64,000 bases of DNA from Acrocarpospora catenulata (GTDB taxonomy: Bacteria > Actinomycetota > Actinomycetes > Streptosporangiales > Streptosporangiaceae), in contig NZ_JAHCST010000016.1 of assembly GCF_018476525.1 (NCBI RefSeq), forward strand, positions 62,001 through 126,000, in the 5' to 3' direction. Numbering within the stretch: position 1 is the first letter of the stretch; each line of letters begins with the position of its first letter. The position numbers and the translations under genes were made by a program. The notes beneath the pieces were generated by a model that was not told the DNA's origin, did no database searches, and saw only the letters and a program-made list of their open reading frames with translations. Positions 1,117 through 24,880 of this stretch are shown piece after piece.

Positions 1117-1117
1117 C

Positions 1118-6054: not shown

Positions 6055-6088
6055 ACGAGATGACATCTCGTAATACGAGATGTCATCT
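6055..6088 (+). promoter_or_regulatory. phased operator array (ACGAGAT / ATCTCGT half-sites every 10 bp)
   Basis: Half-sites alternate at exact 10-bp steps: ACGAGAT (6055-6061), ATCTCGT (6065-6071), ACGAGAT (6075-6081) and partial ATCT (6085-6088). The central pair forms ATCTCGTAATACGAGAT; with its flanks (6058-6088) it is a perfect 14+14 bp palindrome around AAT. The same 17-mer occurs at 19204-19220 and 24864-24880. It is probably the binding site of the IclR protein encoded at 24013-24795. It overlaps an in-frame ATG at 6080, an argument for translation starting at 6110 instead. Confidence 0.8.
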
Positions 6089-6109
6089 GCCAGCAGCGAA
6101 GGACGCTCC

Positions 6110-7006
6110 TTGACCCGAGACGAAGCACTTCTGCCAGTTCCTCCGCGTCCAGCTCAGTTCTTCGAGCTGAGCGCCGACTACGTCGTCGCCGACGCCGCCG
6201 GACAGCTGTCGACGGGATGGCGGCTCGGAACGGGGGAGCACTCCTGGCTCTACCGCGCCCAGAACTTCGTGATCGGCTTGACCTGGCTGGACGCGGGCAG
6301 CGAGCTGCGCCACGTCGACACCCCCGACGAGCACGTGCTGGCCGTCCTGGACGAGGCCTCGGTCGAGGTGTCCGCGGCGGGACAGGGCCCCGTGCAGGTC
6401 GGAGGCCAGTCGCTGGTCGTCGTTCCGGCAGGTGAGTCTCGCGTCGTGGGAAGCGCTCCCGGCTTCGTGCTGAGTGTCTTCACGGCCCGTGCCACGCAGG
6501 TGCTGGCTCAGGCGCGGAACAGCCAGGCCTACGCCGTACGCGATCCTGCGGTCGAGGAGCTCCCCGCGCTGACGCCCTCGCGCGCGCCGCGCGGTCTTCA
6601 GGTCTACTCCGTGGCCGACTTCGAGGCCGTGGGGGAGGTCCCCGGACGACCGTTCCGGACCGACTCCCTGACGGTCAACTGGTTCGAGCCGGAGGTCGGA
6701 CCTGCGGACACGAGCCGGATGACGCCGCACAGCCACGCTGACTACGAGCAGGCCAGCGTGACGCTCGCCGGTGAGTACGTCCATCACGTCCGGCGGCCAT
6801 GGACGGCGCGACTGGCCGACTGGCGCGCCGACGAGCACGTGCACGTGACGAGTCCGTCGATCACCATCATCCCGGCCGGGAACATCCACACGAGTCGACC
6901 CATCGGTGCCGGGTTGAACCAGCGAATCGACGTGTTCGGAGTGCCGCGTCCCGACTTCGTCGACCGCGGCATGTTCATCAACAAGGCCTTGTACGAAAGG
7001 AGCTGA
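6110..7006 (+). CDS. bicupin-domain protein
   Basis: Two cupin barrels in about 298 residues. The second has likely metal ligands in TPHSHADYEQASVTLAGEY with later histidines near HVHV and IHTS. The first half (HVDTPDEHVLAVLDEASVEV) is more degenerate. TTG 6110 is preferred because GAAGGA lies six bases upstream; the ATG at 6080 sits inside the operator without a ribosome site. First gene of an operon with the Rieske oxygenase (2-bp gap). It may be a dioxygenase, an isomerase or a non-catalytic helper; the sequence does not decide. Confidence 0.78.
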   Translation: MTRDEALLPVPPRPAQFFELSADYVVADAAGQLSTGWRLGTGEHSWLYRAQNFVIGLTWLDAGSELRHVDTPDEHVLAVLDEASVEVSAAGQGPVQVGGQSLVVVPAGESRVVGSAPGFVLSVFTARATQVLAQARNSQAYAVRDPAVEELPALTPSRAPRGLQVYSVADFEAVGEVPGRPFRTDSLTVNWFEPEVGPADTSRMTPHSHADYEQASVTLAGEYVHHVRRPWTARLADWRADEHVHVTSPSITIIPAGNIHTSRPIGAGLNQRIDVFGVPRPDFVDRGMFINKALYERS

Positions 7007-7008
7007 TC

Positions 7009-8184
7009 GTGACCACACTACTTCCGCCGGAGCCTCTGGCCGATCGGGTCAGGACGCTCACCCCGTTCGAGACCGGACCAGGGACTCCCGCCGGCCGGTA
7101 TCTGCGCAGCTTCTGGCAGCCCATCGCTCGCTCTGTCGACCTGGAGGCCGGGCAGGCTCAGCCGGTCACGATCATGAGCGAGGAGCTCACGCTCTTCCGA
7201 GGCGAGAGCGGACGGCCGGTGGTGATGGACGCCCTGTGCCCGCACCGGCTGACCAAGCTGTCGATCGGCAACGTCGAGGGCGACGCCATCCGTTGCCAGT
7301 TCCACGGCTGGAAGTTCGGCGCGGACGGGCGCTGCGTCGAAGCCCCGCTGCAGACCCCGGCTCTCCTCGAGCGCGTCACCATCGGAACGCGTCCGGTCCG
7401 CGAGGAGTTCGGGCTGATCTTCGTGTACCTCGGAGAGGGGCCCGAGCCGGCGTTCCCCGACATCGCGGCGTACTCACGGGCTCATGGGCACGGGATGGCA
7501 TCCGCCCCCGTCCTCGAAGCCGAGGTCTACCGTCGATACTGCAATTGGTATCTCAACCATGAGAACTCGATGGACCTGGCGCACGTGCCCTACACGCACG
7601 CGCTGTCGGCCAACCCGGAGCTGACTCGCACCGGATTCTCCGGCGATGCCGCCGTCGTGCGTGACTTCACCGTTGAGCGCCTGGAGTACGGCGTCAGGGT
7701 CGAGCAGGTCGACGACGAGGGACTCCACGCACGAGTCACGGTCCTGTTCCCCAACGTGATGCACCTGATCATCCCTATGCGCATCGGAACGCTCGAGAAC
7801 CTCTACTGGCGCGTTCCCATCGACGACGAGAACCACAAGGGCTTCGGGATCATGTCGATCCACACCGACGAGGAGGGTGCTCGTGAGTGGCGACAGACTC
7901 AGAAGGAGCTCGAGGAGGTCGCCGCGAGGTACCCGCTCACCGAGGACTGCGCCCAGCAGATCATTCGCGGTGAGAAGAGGCTGATCGACTTCGTCGACCA
8001 CCCCAAGCTGCAGGGCATCGAGGACGCGCTGACGCAGCAGGCGATGCGCCACATCGCCGATGCGAACCTGCAGAACCTGGGCAGGTCGGATCGAGCCATC
8101 CTCCAGCTCCGGCGCATGTTCTTGAGTCGCGTCGCCGAGTTCGTCGCCGGTGAGCCGTCGGCCTCCGACGTCTGGCCGACGTAG
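7009..8184 (+). CDS. Rieske non-heme iron oxygenase, large subunit
   Basis: Terminal oxygenase of 391 residues. The Rieske [2Fe-2S] ligands are C77, H79, C96 and H99 (CPHR...CQFHGW). The mononuclear iron site is the NSMDLAHVPYTH segment, with H192, H197 and bridging D189. GTG 7009 is chosen: AAGGAG lies seven bases before it. It belongs to the phthalate/vanillate-type oxygenases that hydroxylate or O-demethylate aromatic acids. No reductase is adjacent, so it may use the one at 103-1116. Regulation is probably through the operator upstream of the cupin gene. Confidence 0.93.
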   Translation: MTTLLPPEPLADRVRTLTPFETGPGTPAGRYLRSFWQPIARSVDLEAGQAQPVTIMSEELTLFRGESGRPVVMDALCPHRLTKLSIGNVEGDAIRCQFHGWKFGADGRCVEAPLQTPALLERVTIGTRPVREEFGLIFVYLGEGPEPAFPDIAAYSRAHGHGMASAPVLEAEVYRRYCNWYLNHENSMDLAHVPYTHALSANPELTRTGFSGDAAVVRDFTVERLEYGVRVEQVDDEGLHARVTVLFPNVMHLIIPMRIGTLENLYWRVPIDDENHKGFGIMSIHTDEEGAREWRQTQKELEEVAARYPLTEDCAQQIIRGEKRLIDFVDHPKLQGIEDALTQQAMRHIADANLQNLGRSDRAILQLRRMFLSRVAEFVAGEPSASDVWPT

Positions 8185-8233
8185 CCGGAGCACACCATGC
8201 CAGGCATAGATGTTCGACATGAGAACGGTGACG

Positions 8234-9457
8234 ATGACTGACTCTGTGAGTGGCCCTCTGGCCGGCGTGCGCGTGGTCGACATGACCACCTCGTACGCCG
8301 GGCCGACCGCGGCGATGTACCTCGCCGACCTCGGAGCCACGGTGATCAAGGTCGAGCGGCCCGGTCACGGTGACGACGCCCGCGGGTGGGGCCCGCCGTT
8401 CGTCGAGGGGGCCTCTGCGTGGTTCGCGTCCGCGAACCGCAACAAGGGTTCGCTGGTCGTCAACCTCCGCGCGCCGGAAGGCCGGGAGGTGCTGCTGCGC
8501 CTGCTCGACACGGCGGACGTCTTCCTCCAGAACATGAACCCCGGGAAGCTGACCCGTCTCGGCATCGACGGAGACACTCTGCGGGTCCGCAACCCGCGCC
8601 TGGTCTACTGCGCGGTGTCGGGCTTCGGTCTCGACGGCCCCGACAGCGACCTACCCGGCTACGACCTGGTCGCCCAGGCACGCTCCGGGCTGATGTCGGT
8701 GACCGGCGCGAAGGGTGGCACCCCGCAGCGGGTCTCCACGGCCCTGTCCGACGTGGTCACCGGCATGGCGGCCGCGATCGCCATCAACGCCGCACTGGTC
8801 CGCCAGGCTCGGACAGGCGAGGGGGAGACCATCGACGTCTCCCTTCTCGACACCGACCTGGCGCTCATGGCGCCCCGGATCGCGGCGTACAGCGTCGACG
8901 AGCCGGAGCCGGCGCCGAGCGGCGGCACCGACTCGGTGCTCGCCATCTACCAGTCCTTCGAGGCCGCCGACCGCACCATCGTGGTCGCGATCGGAAACGA
9001 CGCGATGTGGAAGCGCTTCTGCGGCGCGGTTGGGCTCCCCGACCTCGCGGCGGATCCGGCCCTGGCCGACAACGCCGGACGCCGCGACCAGCGGACCCGG
9101 ATCACCGCCGAGGTCGGGGAGCGGCTGGCCACTCGATCGGCCTCCGACTGGCTTCGCATCCTCGGGAAGGCCGAGATCCCGGTCTCGCTGGTCCAGACGC
9201 TCGCCGAGGTGGTCAAGGATCCGCAGGTCATCGCGCGCGGCTCCCTGCTTCCCGTCCCCGGCTTCCAGCAGGAGCTCGTGAGCGTCCGCAGCCCGTTCCG
9301 GCTGGCCTCCCAGGACACGCCCCGCAATGAGCGCTTCCCCGGGCTCGGAGCAGACACGCGCACGATCCTGGTCGACCTGGGCTACAGCGACCAGCAGGTG
9401 GACGAGCTCGCCGCCGCGGGTGCCGTCGGGCTGCCCAAGGGGGTGCTCGCCTCGTGA
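8234..9457 (+). CDS. class III (CaiB/BaiF) CoA-transferase
   Basis: Formyl-CoA-transferase-type enzyme of about 407 residues, beginning [20 protein letters not shown]. The catalytic Asp is expected in [13 protein letters not shown] (D144). It transfers CoA between organic acids and probably activates the aromatic or alicyclic acid or a ring-opened product. ATG 8234 was preferred; an in-frame ATG at 8210 is possible. It overlaps the next reading frame by 4 bases and opens the acyl-CoA operon running to about 18.3 kb. Confidence 0.88.
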
Positions 9458-9861
9458 CCGGCCCTGTCCGCACCGAACGCCGCGGTGCGGTCGTGGTCGT
9501 CACGATCGACCGGCCTGAGGTCTTCAACGCGCTGAACGCCGAGGTGCTCGGGCGGCTGCGAGCCGCCGTGCTGGACGCGGAGGACGAGGCCCGCCGCACC
9601 ATGGAGGCCGGGCAGCGCGCCCTGCGCGACATCGAACGGGTCGCGGTCCCGGTCATCGCGGCGGTCAACGGCGTGGCCCTCGGCGGTGGCTTCGAGCTCG
9701 TGCTGGCCTCCACCTTCCCGGTGTTGTCCACGCGAGCGTCGCTCGGGCTGCCGGAGTCGGGACTCGGCCTCATCCCCGGGTACGGCGGCACGCAGCGGCT
9801 GCCGCGCTTGGCCCGGCGGCCCGCCGCCTTCGCCGACCTCGTCCGGCAGGAGCCGGCATGA
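9454..9861 (+). pseudogene. truncated enoyl-CoA hydratase (crotonase) with internal deletion
   Basis: The open frame gives 135 residues where crotonases have about 255. The N-terminus ([20 protein letters not shown]) and centre ([20 protein letters not shown], then [17 protein letters not shown]) are clear. Between them, after LDAEDEARR, the segment normally holding the FCAGADL oxyanion strand is missing, and everything after about residue 120 is gone. The frame stays open and overlaps both neighbours (ATGA), so it may still be translated, but it should be inactive. Confidence 0.85.
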
Positions 9862-11081
9862 GCATCGAGCCGCTCGATCTCGACGTGAGCCCCAAGGCGT
9901 ACGTGGCCCTCCACGACGCGCTCGACGAGCCTGCTGCCGATGCGGCGCTGACCGAGCGCGAGCTCGAGGTCCGGGCAGTCGCCCGCAATGTGGTCTCCCG
10001 CGAGGTCGCTCCCCGCGCCGCTGGGCTCGACGAGGCGCAGGACTTCGCGCACGACAGTGTCCAGGCGCTCGCCTCCGCGGGCCTCATGGGGCTCGTCTTC
10101 CCCGAGCGGCTCGGCGGCACCGGCGACACCAACGTCGCGTACGCCGTCGCCATGGAGGAGATCACCGCCGGGTGCGCGGCCACCTCACTGGTCTTCATGA
10201 CCCAGATGCACGCGGCGTACCCGATCCTGATCGCCGGCAGCGACCAGCTCGCCGAGCGGTACGTCCCCGGTTTGGTCCGCGGTTCGGTCTACGGCTCGCT
10301 CGGCATCACAGAGCCCCAGGCCGGCAGCGACGTCGCCAGCCTCCAGACGACGGCCCGGCCCACCGGGGACGGCTACCTGCTGAACGGTTCCAAGACCTTC
10401 ATCACCACCGGTGACCGCGCCAGGGTGATCATCTGCTTCGCGACGACCGACCGGTCGCTCGGGCGGCGCGGCATCACCGCCTTCGTCGTCGACGGCAGCT
10501 GGGAGGGCGTCACGCACGGCCGGCCATTCGCCAAGCTCGGCATGCACGGCTCGAGCACCGCAGAGCTCTTCTTCGACGGCGTGCAGATCCCTGCCGACCA
10601 CCTCCTGGGAGACGAGGGCGGGGGCTGGCAGGTTGTGATGAGTTCGGTGGTCAAGTCGCGCATCAGCGCGGCGGCCCAGGGCGTCGGCCTGGCTCGGGCG
10701 GCGTACGCGCGGACGTTGGCGTTCCTGACCCGGCAGCACGGTGCCCGGCTGCCCGACGAGCAGACCTTCGCGCTGGCCGAGCTGCGCGGCCGGATCCTCC
10801 AGGGCCGCCTCCTGCTGCACGCGGTGGCCCGTCAGGTCGACGGCTCGACCGACATCCCGACCGGCCAGATCGGCATGATGAAGCAGGCCTGCACCGACCT
10901 CGGGTTCGCCGCGGCGGTGGCCGCCACCCGGCTCCTCGGACCTTACGGCGACCTCGCCGTCCTCGGCGTCGAGCGATGCCTGCGCGATGCCAAGGTCACC
11001 CAGATCTACGACGGCACCAACGAGATCCAGCGACTGTTGATCGGCCGCGAGACCACCCGCGCGATGGGAGAGCTGTCATGA
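9858..11081 (+). CDS. acyl-CoA dehydrogenase
   Basis: FAD-dependent acyl-CoA dehydrogenase, 407 residues, with the hallmark segments [37 protein letters not shown] and a C-terminal [15 protein letters not shown]. In many family members the last motif is YEGT, whose Glu is the catalytic base; here it is Asp (D385). Some branches place the base elsewhere, so activity may persist. Starts within the crotonase stop and overlaps the SDR by 4 bases. Confidence 0.92.
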
Positions 11082-11830
11082 CCGACCTCACCGGCAAGGT
11101 CGCCATCGTCACCGGTGCCGGACGGGGCCTCGGGCGATCGATGGCCGAGGCCCTCGTCGGCGCCGGAGCATCGGTCACGGTCGCCTCCCGCACCTCCGGC
11201 GAGCTCAATTCGTTCGTCGAGGAGGCCAAGGCGGGCGGCGGCGAGGCGCTCGCCTGCCCGACCGACATCACCGACGAGGCGTCCGTCGAACGGATGGTCC
11301 AGGCGACCGTCGAGACGTTCGGGCGCCTGGACATCCTGGTCAACAACTCCGGGATCGTCGCCTCGACGCCGCTGCTCGACCAGGGCGCCGACGAGTGGGA
11401 TCAGGTCCTCGCCACCAACCTGCGCGGGACCTACCTGGCCACCCGGGCGGCCGGGCGCCACCTGACCGCCCAGGGCTCGGGCAAGGTCATCAACATCGCC
11501 TCCAACTTCGCACTCCAGGGCGTGCCCAACCACGCGGCGTACTCGGCCTCGAAGGCCGGCGTCATCGGGTTCACCCGGTCGATCGCCATGGAGTGGGCCC
11601 GCGCCGGCGTCCAGGTCAACGCCATCGCGCCCGGCTACTTCGCCACCCCGCTGAACGCCGACCTGCGCAAGGACGCCGATACCTTCGCGAAGGTCGTGCG
11701 CGCCATCCCCGCCCGCCGCATGGGGGAGCCCGACGAGCTCCAGCCATGGCTGCTGCTGCTGGCCGGCAGCGCCTCGGACTTCATGACCGGCGAAGTCATC
11801 GTCGTCGACGGCGGCCAGTCCGTCCGCTGA
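11078..11830 (+). CDS. SDR-family oxidoreductase (FabG-like)
   Basis: Classical SDR of 250 residues: TGAGRGLG cofactor loop, NNSG, catalytic Ser in NIASNF, and the catalytic YSASK. C-terminus GEVIVVDGGQSVR is typical of 3-oxoacyl reductase or hydroxy-acid dehydrogenase types. Start ATG 11078 overlaps the acyl-CoA dehydrogenase stop. Probably oxidises or reduces a hydroxyl/keto intermediate of the ring pathway. Substrate unknown. Confidence 0.92.
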   Translation: MTDLTGKVAIVTGAGRGLGRSMAEALVGAGASVTVASRTSGELNSFVEEAKAGGGEALACPTDITDEASVERMVQATVETFGRLDILVNNSGIVASTPLLDQGADEWDQVLATNLRGTYLATRAAGRHLTAQGSGKVINIASNFALQGVPNHAAYSASKAGVIGFTRSIAMEWARAGVQVNAIAPGYFATPLNADLRKDADTFAKVVRAIPARRMGEPDELQPWLLLLAGSASDFMTGEVIVVDGGQSVR

Positions 11831-11851
11831 CCGCACATCCCAGGAGTATCA

Positions 11852-12730
11852 GTGAGCAACGAGAGCAAGACCGTCGCCGTCCTCGGCGCCGGGACCATGG
11901 GGTCGGGCATCGCAACCGTGATGACCCGGGCCGGGCACCGGACCATCCTCTTCGACGTCGATGAGACCAACCTCCGTCGCGGCATCGACACCGTGCACGC
12001 GTTCTTCGACCGCAGCGTGCAGCTCGGGAAGCTCGACGGGACGGCCGGGCAGGCCGCGAAGGACGCGCTGGCCGGCAGCACCGACCTCGCCGACCTGGCG
12101 CCGTGCGACGTGGTCGTCGAGGCGGTCTTCGAGGACCTGGCTCTCAAGAAGGAAACCTTCGGACGGCTCGACGAGATCGTGTCGCCCGCGACCCTCTTCC
12201 ATACCAACACCTCGACGCTCTCGGTCACCGGCATCGCGTCCGGCTCCCGGCTTCCCGAGCGGGTCGTCGGCACCCACTACTGCAACCCGGCGCCGCTGAT
12301 GAAGCTCGTCGAGGTCGCGGACGGCCGCCACACGGCCGACTGGGCTCACAAGGCGACCGTCGAGTTCCTCGCCTCCCTGGGCAAGACCAGCGTGGTCACC
12401 AAGGACCGCCCCGGCTTCATCGTCAACCGCTTCCTCATCCCGTGGGAGAACTCGTGCATCGCCGCGCTCGAGGCCGGCATCGCGAGCAAGGAGGCGATCG
12501 ACGAGGCCGTCCTCGGCTCGCTCGGTCACCCGATGGGCCCGTTCCGGCTGCTCGACATCGTCGGCCTCGACATCCACCAGCAGGTCGCGACCCGGCTCTA
12601 CGAGCAGCTGCGCGACCCGCGCTTCTTCCCGCCGCCGATGGTCGAGCGGATGGTCGCCGCGGGCGACCTCGGCCGCAAGACCGGCCGCGGGTTCTACGAC
12701 TACGACGACACCCGTCTCTTCGGGTCCTGA
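11852..12730 (+). CDS. 3-hydroxyacyl-CoA dehydrogenase (first copy)
   Basis: NAD-dependent dehydrogenase of 292 residues with a GAGTMGSG Rossmann loop, the DVVVEAVFEDLALKKE segment, NTSTLSVTGIA, the catalytic His in VGTHYCNPAPLMKLVEV, and a C-terminal helical domain ending GRKTGRGFYDYDD. GTG start at 11852 with a GGAG about 7-9 bases upstream. Length and motifs are complete. It is followed 12 bp later by a second, diverged copy, suggesting two different hydroxyacyl-CoA substrates. Confidence 0.92.
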   Translation: MSNESKTVAVLGAGTMGSGIATVMTRAGHRTILFDVDETNLRRGIDTVHAFFDRSVQLGKLDGTAGQAAKDALAGSTDLADLAPCDVVVEAVFEDLALKKETFGRLDEIVSPATLFHTNTSTLSVTGIASGSRLPERVVGTHYCNPAPLMKLVEVADGRHTADWAHKATVEFLASLGKTSVVTKDRPGFIVNRFLIPWENSCIAALEAGIASKEAIDEAVLGSLGHPMGPFRLLDIVGLDIHQQVATRLYEQLRDPRFFPPPMVERMVAAGDLGRKTGRGFYDYDDTRLFGS

Positions 12731-12742
12731 GAGGAGAGCTCG

Positions 12743-13612
12743 ATGAACGACTTCCAGAGGGTCGGCCTGCTCGGCTTCGGGACCATGGGTGCCGGGATAG
12801 CCCAGGTCTTCGCCGCCGCCGGCCGCGACGTGGTCGTGCTGGAGGCAGACCAGTCCCGGATCGGGGCCGGCACGGTCGCGGTCGCCGAGCTCCTCGCGGG
12901 CGGGGTGGCCCGCGGCAAGCTCACTGAGGACACCAGGAAAGCGGTGCTGAGCCGGATTACGGGGACCACCGAGGTCGCGGATCTGGCCGGCGTCGACCTC
13001 GTGGTCGAGTCGGTCACCGAGGACGCCGAGCTCAAGAAGGCGCTGCTCGCGCGAGTGGCCGACGTGGTCGGAGTCGACACTCCGATCCTGACCAACACCT
13101 CGACCCTGTCGGTCACCGACCTCGCCGCGGCGCTCCCCAACCCGACCCGGGTCGCCGGTCTCCACTTCTTCAACCCCGCACCGATGATGCGCACCGTCGA
13201 GGTGGTCCGAGCGCTGCAGACCGACGAGGCGCTCATCGACCGGCTCGTCGCGTTCGTCGACATGCTGGACGGCAAGAAGCCCGTCGTCGTCGAGGACCGG
13301 CCCGGGTTCCTCGTCAACGCGCTGCTGCTGCCGTACCTCAACGACGTCATCGCCGAGTACGACGACGGGCTGGCCACCGCCGAGGACATCGACCTCGCGC
13401 TCCGCCTGGGGCTCGGCTACAAGACCGGACCGCTCGAGATGCTCGACATGATCGGCCTCGACGTCCACCTGCGCGCGACCGCGAGCGCTCACGCCGCCAC
13501 CGGCGACGACCGTTACTCCCCGCCGCCTCTGCTGCGGCGGATGGTGGCCGCCGGACGGCTGGGTGCCAAGAGCGGCCAGGGATTCCGCACCGGGAAGAAG
13601 GAAAGCCGATGA
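12743..13612 (+). CDS. 3-hydroxyacyl-CoA dehydrogenase (second copy)
   Basis: 289 residues with GFGTMGAG, DLVVESVTEDAELKKA, NTSTLSVTDLA, the His-containing GLHFFNPAPMMRTVEV, and C-terminal LGAKSGQGFRTGK. Complete in length. SD-like GAGGAGAG precedes ATG 12743. The stop overlaps the ATG of a 28-codon crotonase remnant. Likely the dehydrogenase of a beta-oxidation-like step on a CoA ester. Confidence 0.92.
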   Translation: MNDFQRVGLLGFGTMGAGIAQVFAAAGRDVVVLEADQSRIGAGTVAVAELLAGGVARGKLTEDTRKAVLSRITGTTEVADLAGVDLVVESVTEDAELKKALLARVADVVGVDTPILTNTSTLSVTDLAAALPNPTRVAGLHFFNPAPMMRTVEVVRALQTDEALIDRLVAFVDMLDGKKPVVVEDRPGFLVNALLLPYLNDVIAEYDDGLATAEDIDLALRLGLGYKTGPLEMLDMIGLDVHLRATASAHAATGDDRYSPPPLLRRMVAAGRLGAKSGQGFRTGKKESR

Positions 13613-13695
13613 ACGTGCCGTCCCGGGAGGCCCACGAGGTCAGCGCCGCGTTCGCGGAGCGCCGCGACCCCGAGCCCGAGAGCTTCTGGTCATGA
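13609..13695 (+). pseudogene. 28-codon remnant of a crotonase C-terminus
   Basis: A tiny frame, coupled by ATGA-type overlaps at both ends, encodes MNVPSREAHEVSAAFAERRD and a short tail. The core (SREAHEV-AAFAERRDP) matches the usual end of enoyl-CoA hydratases (SPEAxEGxxAFxEKRxPxF). The start codon and last helix appear fused by an in-frame deletion. Assignment by motif only; could alternatively be a small coupling ORF. Confidence 0.55.
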
Positions 13696-14743
13696 CCTGG
13701 CGGGGCCCGACGCTCGACGCCGACCAGCTCGACCTGCTGAGCATGCTGCAGAGCCTCGCCGGCGACCGGGATGTGACGCTGACCGACACCCCCGATGTCG
13801 TACGCGGCCTCGTCTCCACACTCGCCGAGCTCGGCGTCTGGACGCTGGGCGTCGAGGAGTCGTACGGCGGAGGCGGCGCAGACGCCGTCACCACCGCAGT
13901 TGCCTGGACGCAGCTGGGCCGCAGCTGGCCGGCGCTCGGCTGGGCCTCGGTCCAGGCACACGCGGCCGTGGCCGTCGTGGGCCCCGACGCCCGGTGTGCG
14001 CAGCTCGTCGGCGCCCTGCACCTCGGTGCCGCCGCCGTGGCGGTGGTGGACGCGAGTTCGCCCCACGTCCGCCTGGCCTGGGACGGCGACATCCTGCGGG
14101 GCACGGTCGACCGAGTCGACGCTGCGGCGGAGGAGCCGCACCTGCTGGTGCTGGACGGCCCGGACGCAGCCCTGCTGGTGCAGCGCTCGGCGCTGACGAT
14201 GACGGCGCTCCGGCGCAGCGGCCTCGGCGGAGCGCTCACCCGCTCGGCACGGGTCGACGCCGGAAGCGGCGACGTGGTCGAGCTGCGCGGCGTGGATGCC
14301 GACCGAGCGCGGGCGCGGCTGCACCGCGGCGCCGCCCTGGTCGCGGCCGGGATCGCGTCCGCGGCCGTGGATGCCGCGACCGCCTACTCCGCCGACCGGC
14401 ACCAGTTCGGCGACGCACTGACTGCGCTCCCGACGGTGCGCCAGTCGTTGCTCGAGCAGGCTGCCGGCGCGTCGGTGGCCCTCACCGCCGCACTCGACCC
14501 ACTCACCGACCCGATCCGCGCACTGGCTGCAGCCCGAGAAGCCTGCGACGGAGCGGTCGAGGTCGCCGCCGCGGCGCTCCAGTCGCACGGCGGCTACGGC
14601 TACCTGACCGAGTACCCACCCGAGCGCCTTCTTCGCGATGCCGTCTCTCTGCGCGCCGCGATCGACCTGCACGGCGCAGCCGTGCGTGCTGCGCGCCTGC
14701 TGGTGGGACGACCGGACACCGACACCCTGCACAGGAAGGCGTC

Positions 14744-14747
<4 letters not shown>
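13692..14747 (+). CDS. acyl-CoA dehydrogenase-like protein
   Basis: 351 residues of the FadE-like branch that pairs with a canonical acyl-CoA dehydrogenase. Features: VEESYGGGGADAVTTAVAW near the N-terminus, AYSADRHQFGDAL and ALQSHGGYGYLTEYPPERLL near the C-terminus. The middle is degenerate and the YEGT catalytic motif is absent, as in other small partner subunits. ATG 13692 overlaps the crotonase remnant; the following ligase overlaps its stop. Probably forms a heteromer with the product at 9858-11081 (inference). Confidence 0.8.
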
Positions 14748-16410
<1,663 letters not shown>

Positions 16411-16414
<4 letters not shown>

Positions 16415-17538
16415 GCGCCGACGCGCCGCCCCTGGCGGGCATCAAGGTGCTCGACCTCTCGACACTGCTCCCGGGTCCGCTCGCCACGCTGCTGCTCGCC
16501 GAGGCGGGCGCCGACGTGGTCAAGCTCGAACGGCCGGGCCGGGGCGACGAGATGCGCAGCTACCTGCCGAGGTTCGGGGAGGCGAGCGCGAACTACGCCG
16601 TCCTGAACCGCGGCAAGCGTGCCTACGGCGTCGACCTCAAGGACCCCGTGCAACGCGACCGGGTGCTCGAGCTCGCAGCCGAGGCCGACGTCGTGGTGGA
16701 GCAGTTCCGGCCCGGTGTCGCCGATCGGCTCGGGCTCGGGTACGACTCCGTGTGCGCGGTCAACCCGGACGTCGTCTACTGCTCGATCACCGGGTACGGC
16801 GCGACCGGTCCACACGCGTCCCGGGCCGGGCACGACCTCAACTATATGGCGGAGTCGGGCCTGCTCGGCGTGGTCGCGGACGCCACCGGCTCGCCGACCC
16901 TGCCGGTGACCGTGCTCGCCGACATCGCCGGCGGCACCTATCCGGCGGTGGTCAACATCCTGCTGGCGCTGCGTCGGCGCGACCTCGGCGGCGGAGGCGC
17001 ACACCTGCAGGTCTCGATGACGCACAACCTGCAGGTCCTCGCCTACGGCTACTTCGCCACCCACCAGGCCGGCGGGGGATGGCCCCGGCCGGGCGCCGAG
17101 CTGCTCACCGGCGGCAGCCCGCGCTACCAGGTCTACCCGACCGCCGACGGGCGGCACATCGCCTGCGCGGCCCTCGAGCAGAAGTTCTGGGACCGGCTCG
17201 TCGACCTGGTCGACCTCGATCGGAGGCTCTGGGACGACGAGGGCCAGGAGCAGGCGGTGATCGCGGCGCTCGGTGCGCGGTTCGCGGCGGAGCCCAGTGA
17301 CCACTGGCGGTCGGTCCTCGACGGCGAGGACGTCTGCACGGTGGTCGTCTCGACCTGGGACGAGGCGGTCGCCGCGGGTCTCGTCGACGTCGATGCTCCC
17401 GAGCGGGTCACCGCACCCGGCACCGGCCGGTCCTTCCCCACGCTGCCCAGCCCGATCGCCCAGAGCCTGCGGGGCACGCCGTCGTCGACGGCGTATCCCT
17501 CACTCGTCGACCTCGGCGACGACTCGCCGTGGGGCTGA
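16411..17538 (+). CDS. class III CoA-transferase or alpha-methylacyl-CoA racemase-like protein
   Basis: 375 residues of the CaiB/BaiF fold, starting LAGIKVLDLSTLLPGPLATL. The segment SRAGHDLNYMAESGLLG and the following LADIAGGTYPAVVNILLAL align with the His and Asp of alpha-methylacyl-CoA racemase, so racemisation of a 2-methylacyl-CoA is as likely as CoA transfer. It overlaps the ligase stop by ATGA. It differs clearly from the transferase at 8234-9457. Confidence 0.85.
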
Positions 17539-19053: not shown

Positions 19054-19198
19054 GGCGGAAACCTAGAGCACGTCAGCCCAAAGTTCAACATTCGTCTGTG
19101 AGGTTGTAGACAATCCCAGTTTTGTCCGACGTTAGACGTTCGAAGTCGGCACTTGTGCTTGCCATCGCATGTGACATAGGTTACGTTCGCATTTCGAG

Positions 19199-19227
19199 TT
19201 GACATCTCGTAATACGAGATGTAGATC
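19199..19227 (+). promoter_or_regulatory. importer-operon promoter with embedded operator
   Basis: TTGACA at 19199-19204 and TAGATC at 19222-19227 are 17 bp apart. The spacer contains the palindrome ATCTCGTAATACGAGAT (19204-19220), which even shares its first base with the -35. A weaker half-site (TCGAGTT) lies exactly 10 bp upstream at 19194. A repressor here would exclude RNA polymerase. The same 17-mer is at 6065-6081 and 24864-24880. Confidence 0.75.
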
Positions 19228-19239: not shown

Positions 19240-19296
19240 ATGTCGCAGCAGGCCGACTCCATGCCCGGTGCACCTACGTTCGTGAGCGACTGGTGA
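19240..19296 (+). CDS. 18-codon leader peptide coupled to the importer permease
   Basis: ATG 19240 has GGGAGAG four to ten bases upstream and opens an 18-residue frame, MSQQADSMPGAPTFVSDW, whose TGA (19294-19296) overlaps the ATG of the permease. The permease has no other good ribosome site, so this mini-ORF likely couples translation. It could be a true leader or the stub of a deleted gene. Translation is inferred only from signal placement. Confidence 0.5.
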   Translation: MSQQADSMPGAPTFVSDW

Positions 19297-20333
19297 TGAT
19301 GCTGACTCACTCGGACGCTCCGGCAGCGCGGACCTCCGGCGCATCCTCGACCGAGACGGCCATCGGGACGGCCCGCGTCGAGCGCCTCGTCGCCTGGGGC
19401 TGGCAGCCCGCTGCCATCGTGGTCTGGATCTTCGTGGCCACCCCGCTGTTCGGCGGCTCGAACGTCTACCCGCTCCTGGTGCTCGCCGGCATCTACGGGA
19501 TCGCGGTCGTCGGCGTGTCCCTCCTCGCCGGCCTCGGGGGGCAGATGACGCTGGGCCACGCGGTCTTCATGGCCATGGGCGCCTACGCATCCGCGCTCGC
19601 GACCACCAAGTGGGGCCTCTCGCCGCTGGCCGGCATGGCCCTCGGCATCGCGGCCGCGCTGACGCTCGCGCTGGTCACCAGCCCGATCCTCCGCCTTCGT
19701 GGCTGGTACCTGGCCATGGCGACCGCCGCGTTCTCGTTTCTCCTGCAGCAGGTCCTCGTCAACCTCAGAGACCTCACCGGCGGCAACAACGGGATCTTCG
19801 GCATCCCGCCTCTCTCAGTGGGTGGCTTCGAGGTGACGGGTGAGAAGTCGTACTTCATCTTCAGCTGGGCCGCTGTCCTCGTGCTGTTCCTGCTGGGTCG
19901 CAACATCGCGCGCTCCAGGTTCGGTCGATCGCTCACCGCCATCCACAAGGACACCGACGCGGCCGCAACGGTCGGGATCAACCCGGCACGGGCCAAGGCC
20001 GTGCTCTGGCTTGTTGCAGCAGTGCCCGCCGCATTCGCGGGATCCGTCTTCGCCCACTACAGCGCGTTCATCGCCCCGACAGACTTCGCCTTCGCGACCT
20101 CCCTGCTGCTCTTCCTTCCCGTCCTCGTCGGAGGAGAGCGAAGCATCTTCGCGGGGCTGGTCATGGTGACGGTCTTCATGACGACCTCCGCCTACGTCAC
20201 TCAGACGTTGACCACCGAGCTCATGGAGGCCATCGCCGTGATCGTCATCTGCCTGCTGTCGCCACACGGACTCGCCGGCCTGGCGAGTACAGCCCTCAGC
20301 CGTCTTCGCGCCATCGGGAGGCGCGATGCTTGA
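19296..20333 (+). CDS. ABC importer permease, LivM type
   Basis: About 345 residues with eight or more hydrophobic segments and LivM signatures: GLGGQMTLGHAVFMAMGAY near residue 84 and ALTAIHKDTDAAATVGIN-like loop (RSLTAIHKDTDAAATVGINP). One of two membrane subunits of a branched-chain-amino-acid-type transporter; in catabolic clusters such systems often import aromatic acids. First structural gene of a five-gene operon under the operator at 19204-19220. GTG 19293, ATG 19296 or ATG 19299 are all possible starts. Confidence 0.9.
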   Translation: MMLTHSDAPAARTSGASSTETAIGTARVERLVAWGWQPAAIVVWIFVATPLFGGSNVYPLLVLAGIYGIAVVGVSLLAGLGGQMTLGHAVFMAMGAYASALATTKWGLSPLAGMALGIAAALTLALVTSPILRLRGWYLAMATAAFSFLLQQVLVNLRDLTGGNNGIFGIPPLSVGGFEVTGEKSYFIFSWAAVLVLFLLGRNIARSRFGRSLTAIHKDTDAAATVGINPARAKAVLWLVAAVPAAFAGSVFAHYSAFIAPTDFAFATSLLLFLPVLVGGERSIFAGLVMVTVFMTTSAYVTQTLTTELMEAIAVIVICLLSPHGLAGLASTALSRLRAIGRRDA

Positions 20334-21093
20334 AGCCTCGAGCCTCTGCGTGGAGTTCGGCGGCGTGTCGGCGCTCTCCGAGGTGACCTTCTCGGTTGCT
20401 GAGGGCTCCGTGCTCGGCCTCATCGGGCCCAACGGCGCAGGGAAGTCGACCTTCATCGGTGCCGCGAGCGGCGTCGTCCTTGCCAGCGCGGGAACCGTCA
20501 CCTGGCGTGGTGCGCCCCTGGCTGGAAGACGCCCCGACCAGATCGCACGCCTCGGCATCGGGCGGACGTTCCAGCATGCCCGCCTCTTTCCAGGACTGAC
20601 CGCCCTGGAGAACGTCATGATCGGGAGCCACCTCGCCGGTCGGTCCGGTGTCTTCAGCGCCATGTTCCGCTCGCGGAGGTGGCGCAAGGACGAGACGCTC
20701 CTGCGGAACGCCGCCCTCGATGCCATGGAGTCCGTCCACGCCCTCGAGCTGGCTCATCGTCTGAGCGAGGACCTCACCGCCGGGCAACAGCGCCTCGTCT
20801 CAGTGGCGCGCGCACTGGCAAGCGGGCCATCGCTGTTGTTTCTCGACGAGCCGGCTGCCGGCCTGACGGACGCCGAGCGGCATCTTCTGGCCGCCGACCT
20901 CAAGCAGTACTTCGCCACGCACGAGGTGACCGTGCTCCTCGTCGAGCACAACCTCGGGTTCCTGATGTCTCTCGTGTCCGACATCGTGGTCTTCGACCGC
21001 GGAACCGTCCTGGCCGAGGGCACGCCTGCCGAGATCCGCTCGAATCGGGCCGTCATCGACGCGTACCTGGGAGCCGACCATGCTGCGCGGTAA
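20326..21093 (+). CDS. ABC importer ATPase, LivG type
   Basis: 255 residues. Walker A GPNGAGKST, signature LTAGQQRLVSVARAL, Walker B LLFLDEPAAGL and H-loop VEHN are all present. The signature is LTAGQ rather than the commoner LSYGQ. It overlaps the permease by 8 bases and LivF by 14, consistent with one transcript. Drives import together with the LivF-type ATPase. Confidence 0.92.
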   Translation: MLEASSLCVEFGGVSALSEVTFSVAEGSVLGLIGPNGAGKSTFIGAASGVVLASAGTVTWRGAPLAGRRPDQIARLGIGRTFQHARLFPGLTALENVMIGSHLAGRSGVFSAMFRSRRWRKDETLLRNAALDAMESVHALELAHRLSEDLTAGQQRLVSVARALASGPSLLFLDEPAAGLTDAERHLLAADLKQYFATHEVTVLLVEHNLGFLMSLVSDIVVFDRGTVLAEGTPAEIRSNRAVIDAYLGADHAAR

Positions 21094-21787
21094 GGGGCTC
21101 GTAGCCGGATACCTCGGAGCACCGGTGCTGCACGAGGTGAGCATCGAGGTGCGTCCCGGAGAGGTGTTCTGCCTCCTCGGAGCAAACGGCGCGGGCAAGA
21201 GCACGACCGCCAAGTGCCTGGCCGGAGTGCTTGGACTTCGTGGCGGTCAGGTCACGATCGACGACGTCGACGTGACGGAGGCGAGCGCCAACGAGCGTGT
21301 GCGTCGAGGGCTCTCGCTGGTTCCCGAGGCGCGACACCTGTTCGGTCGCTCGACGGTTCGCGACAACGTGCTCCTGGGTGGCTGGACGAGATCACGGTCG
21401 GAGCGGAGCGCCTCCTACGACCGCGTCATGGAGACATTCCCTCAGCTGGGAAGACTGCTGAAGAGGAAGGCCCGCGACCTCTCCGGTGGTGAGCAGCAGA
21501 TGGTTGCGATCGCGCGCGCCCTCATGGCCGACCCTCGCTACCTCATCCTCGACGAACCCAGCCTGGGCCTCGCGCCGATCTACGTCGACATCATCCTTCA
21601 GAAGGCCGCAGAGCTCGCCGCGCTCGGAGTCGGTGTCCTGCTGATCGAGCAGAACGTCGGGAAGGCGCTCTCCGTCGGCCACCACGGCGCGGTGGTCGAA
21701 ACCGGCCGAGTCGTCCTGTCCGGCAGCGTGGACGAGCTCGCTTCCGATCCTGCAGTCGTCGACTCCTATCTGGGTAGTGTGGTGTGA
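21080..21787 (+). CDS. ABC importer ATPase, LivF type
   Basis: 235 residues with Walker A GANGAGKST, signature LSGGEQQMVAIARAL, Walker B YLILDEPSLGLAP and H-loop-like LIEQNVG. The Gln in place of His in the H-loop is normal for LivF. Overlaps the preceding and following genes. Forms a heterodimer with the LivG-type ATPase. Confidence 0.92.
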   Translation: MLRGKGLVAGYLGAPVLHEVSIEVRPGEVFCLLGANGAGKSTTAKCLAGVLGLRGGQVTIDDVDVTEASANERVRRGLSLVPEARHLFGRSTVRDNVLLGGWTRSRSERSASYDRVMETFPQLGRLLKRKARDLSGGEQQMVAIARALMADPRYLILDEPSLGLAPIYVDIILQKAAELAALGVGVLLIEQNVGKALSVGHHGAVVETGRVVLSGSVDELASDPAVVDSYLGSVV

Positions 21788-22746
21788 GCACATTCCTGCA
21801 GCTGACCTTCGCGGGACTGAACGTCGGGTTCCTCTACATGCTGGTCGCTCTCGGCATGGTCGTGACCTATCAGGTCTCACGGGTGGAGAGCCTTGCTCAG
21901 GGCACGTACGTCGTCTACAGCGCGTTGATCTTCGGCTCGGTGCGCGACGGCCTGGGATGGCCGTTGGCCGCCCTTGCAAGTCTGCTCGCCTGTGCCGGCA
22001 TCGCGGTGTTCCTGTACCTGCTCGCCCTCAACAGGCTCGCCACACGCGGTGAGACGGGACCCGTCATCATGCTCCTGGGCGGCGCGCTCCTCTTCGCAGA
22101 GCTGGCACGCCAGTTCTGGGGCCTCAACGACCGCAGTGCCAAGCCGTGGCTCTCCAACGAGCCGCTGCGGATCTTCGGTGCGACGGTGCTTCCTCACTCG
22201 CTGTTGATGTGGGCGGGCGCTGCCTTTCTGGTGATCGCCGGCTTCGTGCTCTTCGAGCGGACCATGCTGGGCAAGGCGCTTCGCGCGGCAGCAGACGATG
22301 TCGAAGGGGCGCGCATCGTCGGCATCAACACGAAGGTGATGCAGTTCGTCAGCTTCCAGGTTGCCGGCTTCTTCGGCGCAGCGGCCGGGATTCTCCTGTC
22401 CCCCATCATGCCCTTCGGCTGGACCTGGGTGTTCGCGCTGGCGTTGACGGGTGCGATCGGTGCCATCGCCGGCCGCTGGGAGTACGTCCCCGTGGCGCTG
22501 GCCTCCCTGGCCATCGGCCTGTTCGCCAGCTACGCCGGTGGCTACATCTCGACGTCGTGGCAAGACGTCTACATCTACGGCGCATTCATCGTCGTTCTCC
22601 TTCTGCTACGGGAAGACAAGAGGGCGGGTACTCGTCGTCGACACCGTAGGGGTGGCTCTTCGGGGCCTCGTATCGAGAACGGCCGGGCAACGGCGTCTGC
22701 CGCGGCCGGTCACAACTCCGCACCCGTCCGGGTGCCCGAAGAATGA
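21784..22746 (+). CDS. ABC importer permease, LivH type
   Basis: 320 residues, GTG start overlapping the LivF stop. Multiple membrane helices; LivH-like GMVVTYQVSRVESLAQG near the start and LRAAADDVEGARIVGINTK in the cytoplasmic loop. The last 40 residues are hydrophilic and Arg/Gly/Ala-rich (RRRHRRGGSSG), an extension not usual in the family, perhaps from a shifted stop. It overlaps the start region of the binding-protein gene. Confidence 0.88.
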   Translation: MSTFLQLTFAGLNVGFLYMLVALGMVVTYQVSRVESLAQGTYVVYSALIFGSVRDGLGWPLAALASLLACAGIAVFLYLLALNRLATRGETGPVIMLLGGALLFAELARQFWGLNDRSAKPWLSNEPLRIFGATVLPHSLLMWAGAAFLVIAGFVLFERTMLGKALRAAADDVEGARIVGINTKVMQFVSFQVAGFFGAAAGILLSPIMPFGWTWVFALALTGAIGAIAGRWEYVPVALASLAIGLFASYAGGYISTSWQDVYIYGAFIVVLLLLREDKRAGTRRRHRRGGSSGPRIENGRATASAAAGHNSAPVRVPEE

Positions 22747-22754
22747 GGCATGCA

Positions 22755-23930
22755 ATGAAGCAACCAATGAGGGTGGTCGCCACGGCGATCGCGGCAGGCG
22801 CTGTCGCCCTCACCGCCGCCTGCGGGTCCTCGGGTGGCACCGCCGACGACAGCTCAGGTGAGTCGATCTCCATCGGCGTCGTCATCGACAAGACCGGCGC
22901 CCAGGCCGCGTACGGAGTTCCCGGACTGAACGGCATCCAGTTGGCGGTCGACCAGGTCAACGCCGACGGGGGCATCGACGGCAAGCAGATCGACCTGATC
23001 GTCGAGGACGGCACCTCGGATCCGACAGTCGCGGCCGCGGCAGCCAGAACACTCAGCTCGAAGACCAGCGTGGTGATCGGGACCTCGTCAAGTGCAGGAT
23101 GCCGGGCCATGCAGCCGATCTTGGATCAGGCCAAGGTGCTTCACTTCTGCCTCTCACCCACCAACATCGAGCCGACGCCGTACTTCTTCCTCAGCATGGC
23201 ACCGGTCACCGACTACGTGCCCGCGACGCTGCCCTGGCTCAAGGACCTGGGAGTCCACAAGATCGGCTTCATCGGCCAGGACGACGCCTCCGGTGATGGG
23301 TACCTCTCGATCTTCAGCTACATCGCCAAGAACGACCCCGGTCAGTATGAGGTCGTCGCCGAGCAGCGGTTCACGTCCGGCTCCACGAACCTGGAGACCC
23401 AGATGACGAAGCTGCGCGACGCCAAGCCGGACCTGATCGTCGCCGGCGTCTCGGGCGGCAACATCGTCCCGATAGCCCAGGCCACCAAGGCCCTCGGCAT
23501 GACCCAGCCGATCTGGGTGGGCACGGGCTCGGCATCCTTGGACGCCTTGCAGCCGTTGGCCAACGACCTGCCGCAGGGCGGTCTGTTCGCCAATGCCTTC
23601 TGGGTCGACATCTCCGACGACGTGGAGGACGGCGTTCCCTACGCCGACAAGGTCAAGTCCTTCGCCAAGGCCTACACGGACAAGTACCGGGACCAGCCGC
23701 CCGCGGCCGCCGGGGCCGCCTACGACAACACTGAGATGATCATCAACGCGCTCAAGGGGGGAGCCACGAGCGGCCCCGAGATCGCCAAGGCGATCGAAGA
23801 AGGCTCCTACACCGGAGTCCTCGGACCCTACGAGTTCTCAGCGGACAAGCACCAGGGTGTCACTCTGCCGCCGGTCATGATGCAGTACACCGGTGCCGGC
23901 GGATTCGAGCTGGGCTTCTCCGGCTCCTGA
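22755..23930 (+). CDS. ABC importer substrate-binding lipoprotein, LivJ type
   Basis: A type 1 periplasmic-binding-fold lipoprotein. MKQPMRVVATAIAAGAVAL precedes the lipobox LTAAC with acylated C23. ATG 22755 is preferred (GAGG six bases upstream); ATG 22743 would overlap the previous stop. The ligand domain shows SIGVVIDKTGAQAAYGVPG and TSSSAGCRAMQP. Similar proteins bind aromatic acids or amino acids; the ligand here is probably the pathway substrate. Last gene of the operon, followed by a terminator. Confidence 0.9.
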   Translation: MKQPMRVVATAIAAGAVALTAACGSSGGTADDSSGESISIGVVIDKTGAQAAYGVPGLNGIQLAVDQVNADGGIDGKQIDLIVEDGTSDPTVAAAAARTLSSKTSVVIGTSSSAGCRAMQPILDQAKVLHFCLSPTNIEPTPYFFLSMAPVTDYVPATLPWLKDLGVHKIGFIGQDDASGDGYLSIFSYIAKNDPGQYEVVAEQRFTSGSTNLETQMTKLRDAKPDLIVAGVSGGNIVPIAQATKALGMTQPIWVGTGSASLDALQPLANDLPQGGLFANAFWVDISDDVEDGVPYADKVKSFAKAYTDKYRDQPPAAAGAAYDNTEMIINALKGGATSGPEIAKAIEEGSYTGVLGPYEFSADKHQGVTLPPVMMQYTGAGGFELGFSGS

Positions 23931-23950
23931 ACGACGCGACCCACCTACGC

Positions 23951-23997
23951 TGGTTCGGTTCTGGTCCGGGGACTCTCTTCGGGCCAGAACCGAACCA
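23951..23997 (+). terminator. terminator after the importer operon
   Basis: A 14-bp perfect stem (TGGTTCGGTTCTGG at 23951-23964, complement at 23984-23997), extended inside by TCCG/CGGG. It lies between convergent genes and can serve both. No T-tract. Confidence 0.85.
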
Positions 23998-24012
23998 CTG
24001 TGACGTCATCGG

Positions 24013-24795
24013 TCAGTCGAGCTTCTCCCTGATCTCCTTGGCCGCGGCGAGGACGGCGGCAGCCGTGCGCTCCAGCCGGGGCTCGGTGTAGTGGTGCTCG
24101 AGTCCCGCAACGGAGATCGCGCACACCGGGACGCCGCTGCGGTTGTAGACGACGGCGCCGAGGGACGCGACGCCCTGAGCGATTCCCTCCTGGTTCAGGG
24201 CCCAGCCGCGCTGCCGGATCAAAGCGATCCCCTTCCGGATGTCGTCGGCGGTTCGATCTCCCTGGAGGGTGTGCCAGTCGGTGTTCTCAGCGAGGTAGTG
24301 GTCGATCTCCGCGTCGCTCATAGCGCTCATGAGCGCCTGGGGAGCCGCCCCGAGGTGCATGGGAAGCCATTCGCCGGTGGTCCAGGAGACCACGTCCACC
24401 TCGAGCCCGGGCAGACGAGACAGGCATCGCGCCCCCCAGCCCTCGCGTACGGCGAGGAGAACACTCTGTCGCGTTTCGTCCCGGAGGTTCGCGAGCGTCG
24501 ACTCCGCGACCCTGATGATGGGCATCCTGCTACGCACCGCCGAGCCGTACTGGAGCAACTTCATGCTGAGGTGATACCGGCCGGTGGAGGGGTCTCGGTC
24601 GAGTAGCCCGCCGTGTTCAAGCGAAGCGAGGAGCCGGAAGGCGGTGCTCCGGTTGGTGCCGATCACCTCCGCCACCTGAGTGGGGGTCAGGCCGTCAGTC
24701 ACGGGCAAGAGGGCGTCCAGTGTCTTCACAGCCTTCTCGATGACCGCAATCCGGGAGCCTGCTGATCGTCCCGCCTGCTCGTCTGCGCCCGGCAT
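24013..24795 (-). CDS. IclR-family regulator, probable master of the ATCTCGT regulon
   Basis: 260 residues with winged helix (TPTQVAEVIGTNRSTAFRLLASL near residue 40) and effector domain (WLPMHLGAAPQALMSAM near 145, GVASLGAVVYNRSGVPVCAIS near 210). A strong AGGAGG precedes ATG 24795. The palindrome ATCTCGTAATACGAGAT lies about 70-85 bp upstream, in its own promoter, and identical copies precede the cupin/Rieske and importer operons. Autoregulated repressor (or activator) of these units is the simplest reading; binding is inferred, not shown. Confidence 0.9.
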   Translation of the reverse strand: MPGADEQAGRSAGSRIAVIEKAVKTLDALLPVTDGLTPTQVAEVIGTNRSTAFRLLASLEHGGLLDRDPSTGRYHLSMKLLQYGSAVRSRMPIIRVAESTLANLRDETRQSVLLAVREGWGARCLSRLPGLEVDVVSWTTGEWLPMHLGAAPQALMSAMSDAEIDHYLAENTDWHTLQGDRTADDIRKGIALIRQRGWALNQEGIAQGVASLGAVVYNRSGVPVCAISVAGLEHHYTEPRLERTAAAVLAAAKEIREKLD

Positions 24796-24863
24796 TTTGA
24801 AAGCTTCCTCCTGTTTCGTGGGCGACGGGGTATCGGCTTGTGACGCGTGTATAGCGCGACTAT

Positions 24864-24880
24864 ATCTCGTAATACGAGAT
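24864..24880 (-). promoter_or_regulatory. operator ATCTCGTAATACGAGAT upstream of the IclR gene
   Basis: Third perfect copy of the palindrome. On the minus strand a TATACA (24853-24848) could be the -10 of the IclR gene, which would place the operator over the -35 region. The other side carries only a truncated GNAT pseudogene, so the site most likely serves the IclR gene. Confidence 0.75.

What the first reader, a model, noticed from the sequence alone, without database searches (positions are those of the whole stretch)
6055..24880. One 17-bp palindrome marks three promoters: a local IclR regulon
ATCTCGTAATACGAGAT occurs exactly at 6065-6081, 19204-19220 and 24864-24880. Each copy sits in the control region of a different unit: cupin/Rieske operon, Liv-type importer operon, and the IclR gene itself. 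At 19.2 kb it fills the -35/-10 spacer. Autoregulation plus shared sites make the IclR protein at 24013-24795 the natural binder and link ring oxidation with substrate uptake. Seen: the repeats and their placement. Inferred: the binder.
Basis: partly seen in the sequence, partly recalled or inferred. Interest (0 to 1): 0.75.

Follow-up and report, generated by a model that had tools for sequence, protein, structure and literature searches.

The report
IclR regulon with tandem palindromic operators
A soil actinomycete appears to use one regulator and one short mirror-image DNA sequence to switch several neighbouring gene groups for breaking down and importing a probably aromatic compound; this is a well-supported but ordinary case of a known kind of control.

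Summary
The 17-mer lies exactly at 6065, 19204 and 24864. The 10.3-Mb genome holds four exact copies, all on one contig within 30 kb. The fourth lies 5.1 kb left of the window; a one-sided copy lies 10.5 kb left. In Acrocarpospora pleiomorpha all five sites persist.

The IclR reading is supported. A 62%-identical IclR on two Streptomyces chartreusis plasmids has one-mismatch copies of the palindrome in its own promoter and before a hydrolase gene, and no other place there matches at up to 3 mismatches. The main rival, the GntR-FCD regulator at 5069-5863, fails the reverse test: its 68% orthologs sit on plasmids with no copy at up to 3 mismatches.

Several sites have degenerate partners exactly 20 bp away, as published for IclR-family tandem sites, read there as tetramer binding (PMC8222616).

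New member of a known kind. Binding, effector and sign of control are untested.

The parts
6065..6081 (.). Primary operator, site 1 (exact palindrome), before the Rieske/CoA operon
   Evidence: 16 of 17 bases conserved in A. pleiomorpha, the one change swapping the central A/T
6055..6061 (+). Extra half-site ACGAGAT, 20 bp before the same half-site at 6075-6081. Together with the palindrome it gives three alternating boxes; a partial fourth, ATCTG, begins at 6085
   Evidence: the half-site is conserved in A. pleiomorpha; as a full 17-mer this position scores only -10.0
19204..19220 (.). Primary operator, site 3, before the Liv-type importer operon
   Evidence: 17 of 17 conserved
19184..19200 (.). 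Degenerate secondary operator CGTTCGCATTTCGAGTT, centre 20 bp upstream of the primary
   Evidence: 7th highest weight-matrix score in 84 kb; a partner at the same position in A. pleiomorpha
24864..24880 (.). Primary operator, site 4, centre 77 bp before the iclR start (autoregulation)
   Evidence: kept in A. pleiomorpha, where the long DNA match ends at window 24823 and the DNA to the right of the site does not align
24844..24860 (.). Weak secondary operator position, centre 20 bp from the site 4 primary
   Evidence: score -3.0 here, 3.4 in A. pleiomorpha; marginal
24013..24795 (-). iclR-A: IclR-family regulator, proposed binder
   Evidence: PF09339 and PF01614; PcaR/PcaU/PobR and BhcR models match below cut-off
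6110..7006 (+).
   Evidence: no Pfam family at cut-off, Cupin_6 E=0.015; 45.8% to the S. chartreusis homolog
6799..8184 (+). Rieske-type oxygenase 1 (ORF bounds)
   Evidence: PF00355; 52.5% to the S. chartreusis Rieske protein
8210..17538 (+). CoA-type degradation genes: CoA-transferase III, enoyl-CoA hydratase, acyl-CoA dehydrogenases, SDR, two 3-hydroxyacyl-CoA dehydrogenases, AMP-binding ligase, second CoA-transferase
   Evidence: nine genes in the same order in the GntR-headed cluster of Streptomyces plasmid NZ_CP109164
19293..23930 (+). Liv-type ABC importer operon: two permeases, two ATPases, binding protein
   Evidence: PF02653, PF00005, PF13458
5069..5863 (+). GntR-FCD regulator: rival binder, more likely regulator of the CoA module
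   Evidence: PF00392 and PF07729; orthologs stand before the CoA genes on plasmids lacking the palindrome
1..2514 (+). Distal part of the operon that begins at the site 5.1 kb left of the window: end of Rieske 2 (to 59), Fer2 reductase, class II aldolase, MBL hydrolase
   Evidence: Rieske 2 by 75.5% identity to a S. chartreusis protein with PF00355; same gene order on that plasmid

Best explanation
The palindrome is the operator of the IclR-family protein encoded at 24013-24795 (iclR-A). The protein most likely binds as a dimer of dimers: one dimer on the near-perfect 17-bp palindrome, the second on a degenerate copy (or, at site 1, a half-site) exactly 20 bp, two helical turns, away on the same face of the DNA. 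It controls its own gene, the Liv-type importer, two paralogous Rieske oxygenase units (one at 6.1 kb, one starting 5.1 kb left of the window) and probably an alpha/beta hydrolase gene further left. By the family's usual logic it represses until a substrate or intermediate, probably an aromatic acid, binds its C-terminal domain. Shown: the sites, their restriction to the cluster, their conservation, their co-occurrence with the IclR ortholog and the 20-bp spacing. Inferred: binding, tetramer, repression, the effector and the substrate class.
For: All 4 exact genomic copies lie in one 30-kb cluster. The same 4 plus the one-sided copy are in A. pleiomorpha; 84 of 85 site positions are the same there (83 of 85 in the raw alignment, which put a gap in the intact site 4) against 899 of 1187 flanking alignment columns. 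The 62% IclR ortholog on S. chartreusis plasmids has ATCTCGCATTACGAGAT and GTCTCGTAATGCGAGTA 20 bp apart in its divergent promoter, and ATCTCGTAATGCGAGAT before a hydrolase gene; the first and third are the only places on either whole plasmid at up to 3 mismatches. The stretch TNRSTAFRLL of the HTH domain is invariant in 3 of 3 orthologs. Offset 20 is the best of 51 offsets tested (mean score 1.7 against -20.0, sd 3.1, for the others); 0 of 5000 flank shuffles reach it. The paper reports tandem IclR sites 18-22 nt apart in 94 orthologous groups and a group 1 consensus whose core YCRYW3RYGR the site matches.
Against: No binding data. Of the 17 positions, 4 differ from the published group 1 consensus. 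In the window's species only 2 of 5 sites have a strongly scoring 20-bp partner. Among the three best-aligned sites alone, the conservation excess is not significant (p=0.077). The two Streptomyces plasmids show the same promoter sequence and count as one observation. Near-copies at up to 2 mismatches occur in 30 of 147 other genomes, against 1 match of the backward control, and one lies before an ArsR-type gene, so the sequence alone does not name a family.
Confidence: 0.88

Rival explanations
1. The GntR-FCD (FadR-type) protein at 5069-5863 binds the palindrome. Its gene lies directly before site 1, and the core TCGTAATACGA fits the FadR-subfamily pattern TNGTNNNACNA (pattern recalled, from no call).
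For: Adjacent gene with GntR and FCD domains; fits the recalled consensus; conserved in A. pleiomorpha at 97%.
Against: No copy in its own promoter. The best plasmid orthologs, 68% identical, stand before the CoA genes on plasmids with 0 copies at up to 3 mismatches in 700,580 and 387,208 bases. No homolog at E<=1e-3 in the 40.7 kb around the S. chartreusis sites; the rest of that genome was not searched for it.
Confidence: 0.06
2. Another regulator of the region binds it: the IclR at 4173-4946 or the intact IclR 5.7 kb left of the window (L015:13511-14320).
For: Both are IclR-family, and the second lies close to the -5.1 kb site.
Against: On the S. chartreusis plasmid the only IclR gene annotated in 40.7 kb is the iclR-A ortholog (the gene table is incomplete). 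tblastn of the 4173-4946 protein finds only that same gene, at 25%, and the other IclR finds nothing at E<=1e-8. No scoring copy lies in either gene's own promoter.
Confidence: 0.05
3. The repeats are remnants of a mobile element or of duplicated promoter DNA rather than operators.
For: The two Rieske modules and the two iclR copies are paralogous, so some promoters may share ancestry.
Against: By eye, the 79-bp stretches around the sites share little beyond the palindrome, a few adjoining bases and the 20-bp partner. In A. pleiomorpha the DNA to the right of site 4 does not align, yet the site is whole. The site recurs in Streptomyces before homologous genes.
Confidence: 0.01

Closest known systems
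IclR-family group 1 operators with tandem sites (Suvorova and Gelfand 2021, PMC8222616; abstract, passages and part of the results read)
   Same: Odd palindrome with core YCRYW3RYGR, tandem centres 20 bp apart, site centres mostly -20 to -80 from starts, aromatic catabolism and Liv-type transporter genes among the regulated genes
   Different: Outer bases ATC/GAT; 13 of 17 positions fit GKTYCRYW3RYGRAMC and 15 of 17 fit subgroup WTTYCRYW3RYGRAAW (counted by hand)
PcaU/PobR/HmgR three-box operators (as described in PMC8222616)
   Same: Site 1 has a palindrome plus an external half-site giving three alternating boxes
   Different: The protein matches the PcaR/PcaU/PobR model at 100.7 bits, far below its 284.75 cut-off
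PheR of Sphingobium SHPJ-2 (PMC13273656; passages read)
   Same: An IclR-type repressor reported to couple ring oxidation with uptake
   Different: Different host, motif (GCAACG) and uptake system (TonB-dependent)

Membership tests
IclR-family transcription factor | N-terminal HTH_IclR and C-terminal IclR_C domains | tested here: met
   PF09339 41.3 bits (cut-off 22), PF01614 91.7 bits (cut-off 24)
IclR-family transcription factor | Binds a palindrome of its own promoter and target promoters | not testable with these tools
   Only co-conservation tested
IclR group 1 operator (PMC8222616) | Core YCRYW3RYGR | tested here: met
   TCGTAATACGA fits 11 of 11 positions; hand comparison
IclR group 1 operator (PMC8222616) | Full consensus GKTYCRYW3-4RYGRAMC | tested here: not met
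   13 of 17 positions fit (hand count); 15 of 17 to subgroup WTT-11-AAW
IclR tandem sites | Second site with centre 18-22 nt away | tested here: met
   Offset 20 best of 51; 0 of 5000 shuffles; but a strong partner at only 2 of 5 sites in the window's species
PcaR/PcaU/PobR subfamily (TIGR02431) | Score above curated cut-off | tested here: not met
   100.7 against 284.75 bits
BhcR (NF045644) | Score above curated cut-off | tested here: not met
   108.4 against 350 bits
GntR/FadR-type operator | Site found with orthologs of the GntR gene | tested here: not met
   0 of 2 plasmids with the 68% orthologs hold a copy at up to 3 mismatches

The most novel reading that the evidence does not exclude
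The promoter at 6.0-6.1 kb is a junction of two regulons. An IclR-controlled oxygenase module, with its three- or four-box operator, was inserted between a GntR regulator and its CoA-degradation genes, in the place that an MFS transporter gene holds in the Streptomyces relatives. One transcript then answers to both IclR-A and GntR, and uptake passed to an IclR-controlled Liv importer. In parallel, the iclR copy at the divergent position decayed in two species by different losses, while its operators were kept because the surviving IclR-A acts in trans.
Probability: 0.5. Interest if true: 0.45.

Novelty: new member of a known kind. Interest (0 to 1): 0.35.

Why it matters
It assigns a regulator, an operator and a regulon to an oxygenase-plus-importer cluster for which the paper searches made here found no description, and which includes DUF3500 and a protein with no family at cut-off. 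It gives specialists a ready test case for tetramer binding on tandem IclR sites, and for how catabolic modules with different regulators are joined.

Tried and rejected
GntR-FCD as binder: seriously considered because of its position and its recalled consensus; rejected after the reverse plasmid test.

Search for a separate GntR box by shared words and local alignment between the promoter stretches at 6000-6046 and 4950-5015 and four Streptomyces regions: only short matches (10, 12 and 13 bases with shuffle p of 0, 0.04 and 0.01, the best of 16 comparisons, not corrected), so unresolved.

Footprinting on more IclR orthologs: P0001 at E<=1e-30 hit 2 of 297 family genomes, both Acrocarpospora, and at E<=1e-25 hit 7 of 394 class genomes. 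Apart from the window's own genome these gave seven matches of 29-35% identity in six genomes, and their loci show other palindromes. P0004 at E<=1e-50 hit 0 of 343 genomes of the genus of G110, which I took for Streptomyces from genome size only. Alignment A1 at E<=1e-45 hit only the own genome among 396 of the phylum. The genome-contig scan gave only A. pleiomorpha. So the ortholog is rare in what was searched, and the wider test rests on two plasmids with the same promoter.

Near-matches in relatives: 32 of 149 genomes have a place at up to 2 mismatches, but exact copies occur only in G000 and G001; loci were held for 30 of these places. Of the loci held, only those of G000 and G001 matched P0001, P0002 or P0003 at E<=1e-3. 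The other near-matches were not studied further, except G016, where the gene is ArsR-type. Regions of G062, G073 and G090 were fetched but used only in that search.

Embleya, Rhodococcus and Thioclava DUF3500 regions: no IclR-A homolog at E<=1e-8 in L067, L068 or L070 and no similar palindrome.

Repressor versus activator: not decidable from positions.
Full report
What was checked. In the whole genome the pattern has 4 exact copies, all on contig C67 within 30 kb, and none with 1 or 2 mismatches elsewhere. Ten further places have 3 mismatches, against 1 match of the backward control; one of the ten, CGTTCGTAATACGAGAT at C67:51532, lies in the same cluster.

Where the sites lie. Relative to window position 1, the five sites have centres at -10460, -5085, 6073, 19212 and 24872. 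The -10460 site lies before an alpha/beta hydrolase gene. The -5085 site lies between a decayed iclR paralog and an operon that runs into the window. That operon encodes a tautomerase-like protein (start read from the sequence, not scanned), an FAA-hydrolase-like protein, an HpcH/HpaI-like piece, a SnoaL-like protein, an unassigned protein, DUF3500, Rieske 2, an Fer2 reductase, a class II aldolase and an MBL hydrolase. The 19212 site precedes the Liv-type importer. The 24872 site lies 77 bp before the iclR-A start. That each set of genes is one transcript is inferred from spacing and strand.

A second species. It carries the region with its main DNA blocks 94.6-96.8% identical, and with all five sites. 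Inside the sites 84 of 85 positions are the same, and the single change swaps the central A/T. The raw alignment gives 83 of 85, because it placed a gap in site 4, where the exact 17-mer is present in both. In the flanks 899 of 1187 aligned columns are the same, gaps (end gaps too) counted as differences. Most of this contrast comes from the -10460 and 24872 loci, where the flanks differ strongly; the other three alone give p=0.077. At site 4 the long DNA match between the species ends at window 24823, the DNA right of the palindrome does not align, and yet the palindrome is whole.

The decayed iclR. Beside the -5085 site both species have only parts of a second iclR, about 70-79% identical to iclR-A, but different parts. 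The window's genome keeps stretches matching residues 9-37, 28-50 and 155-259; A. pleiomorpha keeps 7-136. The palindrome beside it is intact in both. That the surviving IclR-A acts there in trans is an inference.

The test between binders. The best plasmid hit of IclR-A is a 62% ortholog on two S. chartreusis plasmids. There it stands divergent from the same operon: aldolase, NTF2-like, unassigned, DUF3500, Rieske, epoxide hydrolase, reductase, aldolase, MBL. Seven of these match the Acrocarpospora genes at 47-76% identity. The gap between them holds ATCTCGCATTACGAGAT and, 20 bp on, GTCTCGTAATGCGAGTA; the sister plasmid is the same there. A third site, ATCTCGTAATGCGAGAT, precedes an alpha/beta hydrolase gene 40% identical to the one at -10460. 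In the whole records the first and third are the only places at up to 3 mismatches; the tandem partner has 4. No GntR-FCD homolog was found in the 40.7 kb at E<=1e-3. Conversely, the best plasmid orthologs of the GntR protein (68%) stand before CoA-degradation genes. On NZ_CP109164 nine of these follow the order of window 8210-17538 at 49-74% identity, with an MFS transporter gene where the Rieske module stands here. Those two plasmids have 0 copies at up to 3 mismatches. Palindrome and IclR go together; palindrome and GntR do not.

Tandem architecture. A matrix built from 15 sites and scanned over the regions put its next-best hits 20 bp from primary sites: 19192 by 19212 and -5105 by -5085 here, 11412 by 11432 and 40321 by 40341 in A. 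pleiomorpha, and 19897 by 19877 in S. chartreusis (the -5105, 11412 and 19897 copies were in that matrix, 19192 and 40321 were not). With a matrix from primary sites only, offset 20 is best of offsets 10-60 in each of the three sequences, averaging 1.7 against -20.0 (sd 3.1) for the rest. No shuffle of 5000 at offset 20, and none of 500 over offsets 17-43, reached the observed value for the 7 loci of the window's genome and the S. chartreusis plasmid. The shuffle permutes two-base blocks and is an approximate null. Not every site has a good partner: the best 20-bp partners of -10460 (-12.4), 6073 (-7.6) and 24872 (-3.0) score poorly here. At 6073 there is instead an exact half-site 20 bp away, giving three alternating boxes.

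Known work. I read the abstract, passages and part 1 of 2 of the results section of PMC8222616. It reports IclR group 1 sites GKTYCRYW3-4RYGRAMC, tandem sites with centres 18-22 nt apart in 94 orthologous groups, three-box sites in 32 groups, and site centres mostly -20 to -80 from starts. In passages of PMC13273656 an IclR repressor links uptake and ring oxidation in Sphingobium. The 15-base core of the motif is in no paper of the library searched, and no paper there holds two of the terms DUF3500, IclR and Acrocarpospora. The regulon thus seems undescribed in that library, but its kind is well known.

Verdict. Observation confirmed; interpretation supported with corrections. The probable start of the first site-1 gene is TTG 6110, not ATG 6080. 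Binding, oligomer, sign and effector remain untested.

Noticed in passing
L015:14347-14800 (5.2-5.7 kb left of the window) and L046:10944-11315: A second iclR is decayed in two Acrocarpospora species by different losses, while the adjacent palindrome stays intact.
   Followed up: partly
window 8210-17538; L075:19317-29745: The CoA-degradation genes keep the order of a GntR-headed cluster on a Streptomyces plasmid, so the window operon looks like a fusion of two modules.
   Followed up: partly
window 6000-6046: TTGACA...AGTCTATTGTCGGTCA before site 1 is largely conserved in A. pleiomorpha and shares short words with the Streptomyces gntR promoters; a possible GntR box.
   Followed up: partly
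window 19240-19296: An 18-codon open frame ends on the importer start (TGATG overlap); possible leader or translational coupling.
   Followed up: no
window 24823 onwards: The DNA match with A. pleiomorpha ends here, just before site 4; no block further right was found in the 60 kb compared.
   Followed up: no
L049:8070-8110: An ArsR-type gene in another genome of the family has two adjacent palindromes very like this one.
   Followed up: partly
L065:26150-26693: Broken pieces of a Liv-type binding protein lie beyond a transposase-like stretch (read by eye) near the third S. chartreusis site.
   Followed up: no
L065:17746-18600, window:6080-7006, L015:16785-17642: A protein family next to Rieske oxygenases with no Pfam family at cut-off in 3 of 3 members scanned and no NCBIfam family in 2 of 2.
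   Followed up: no
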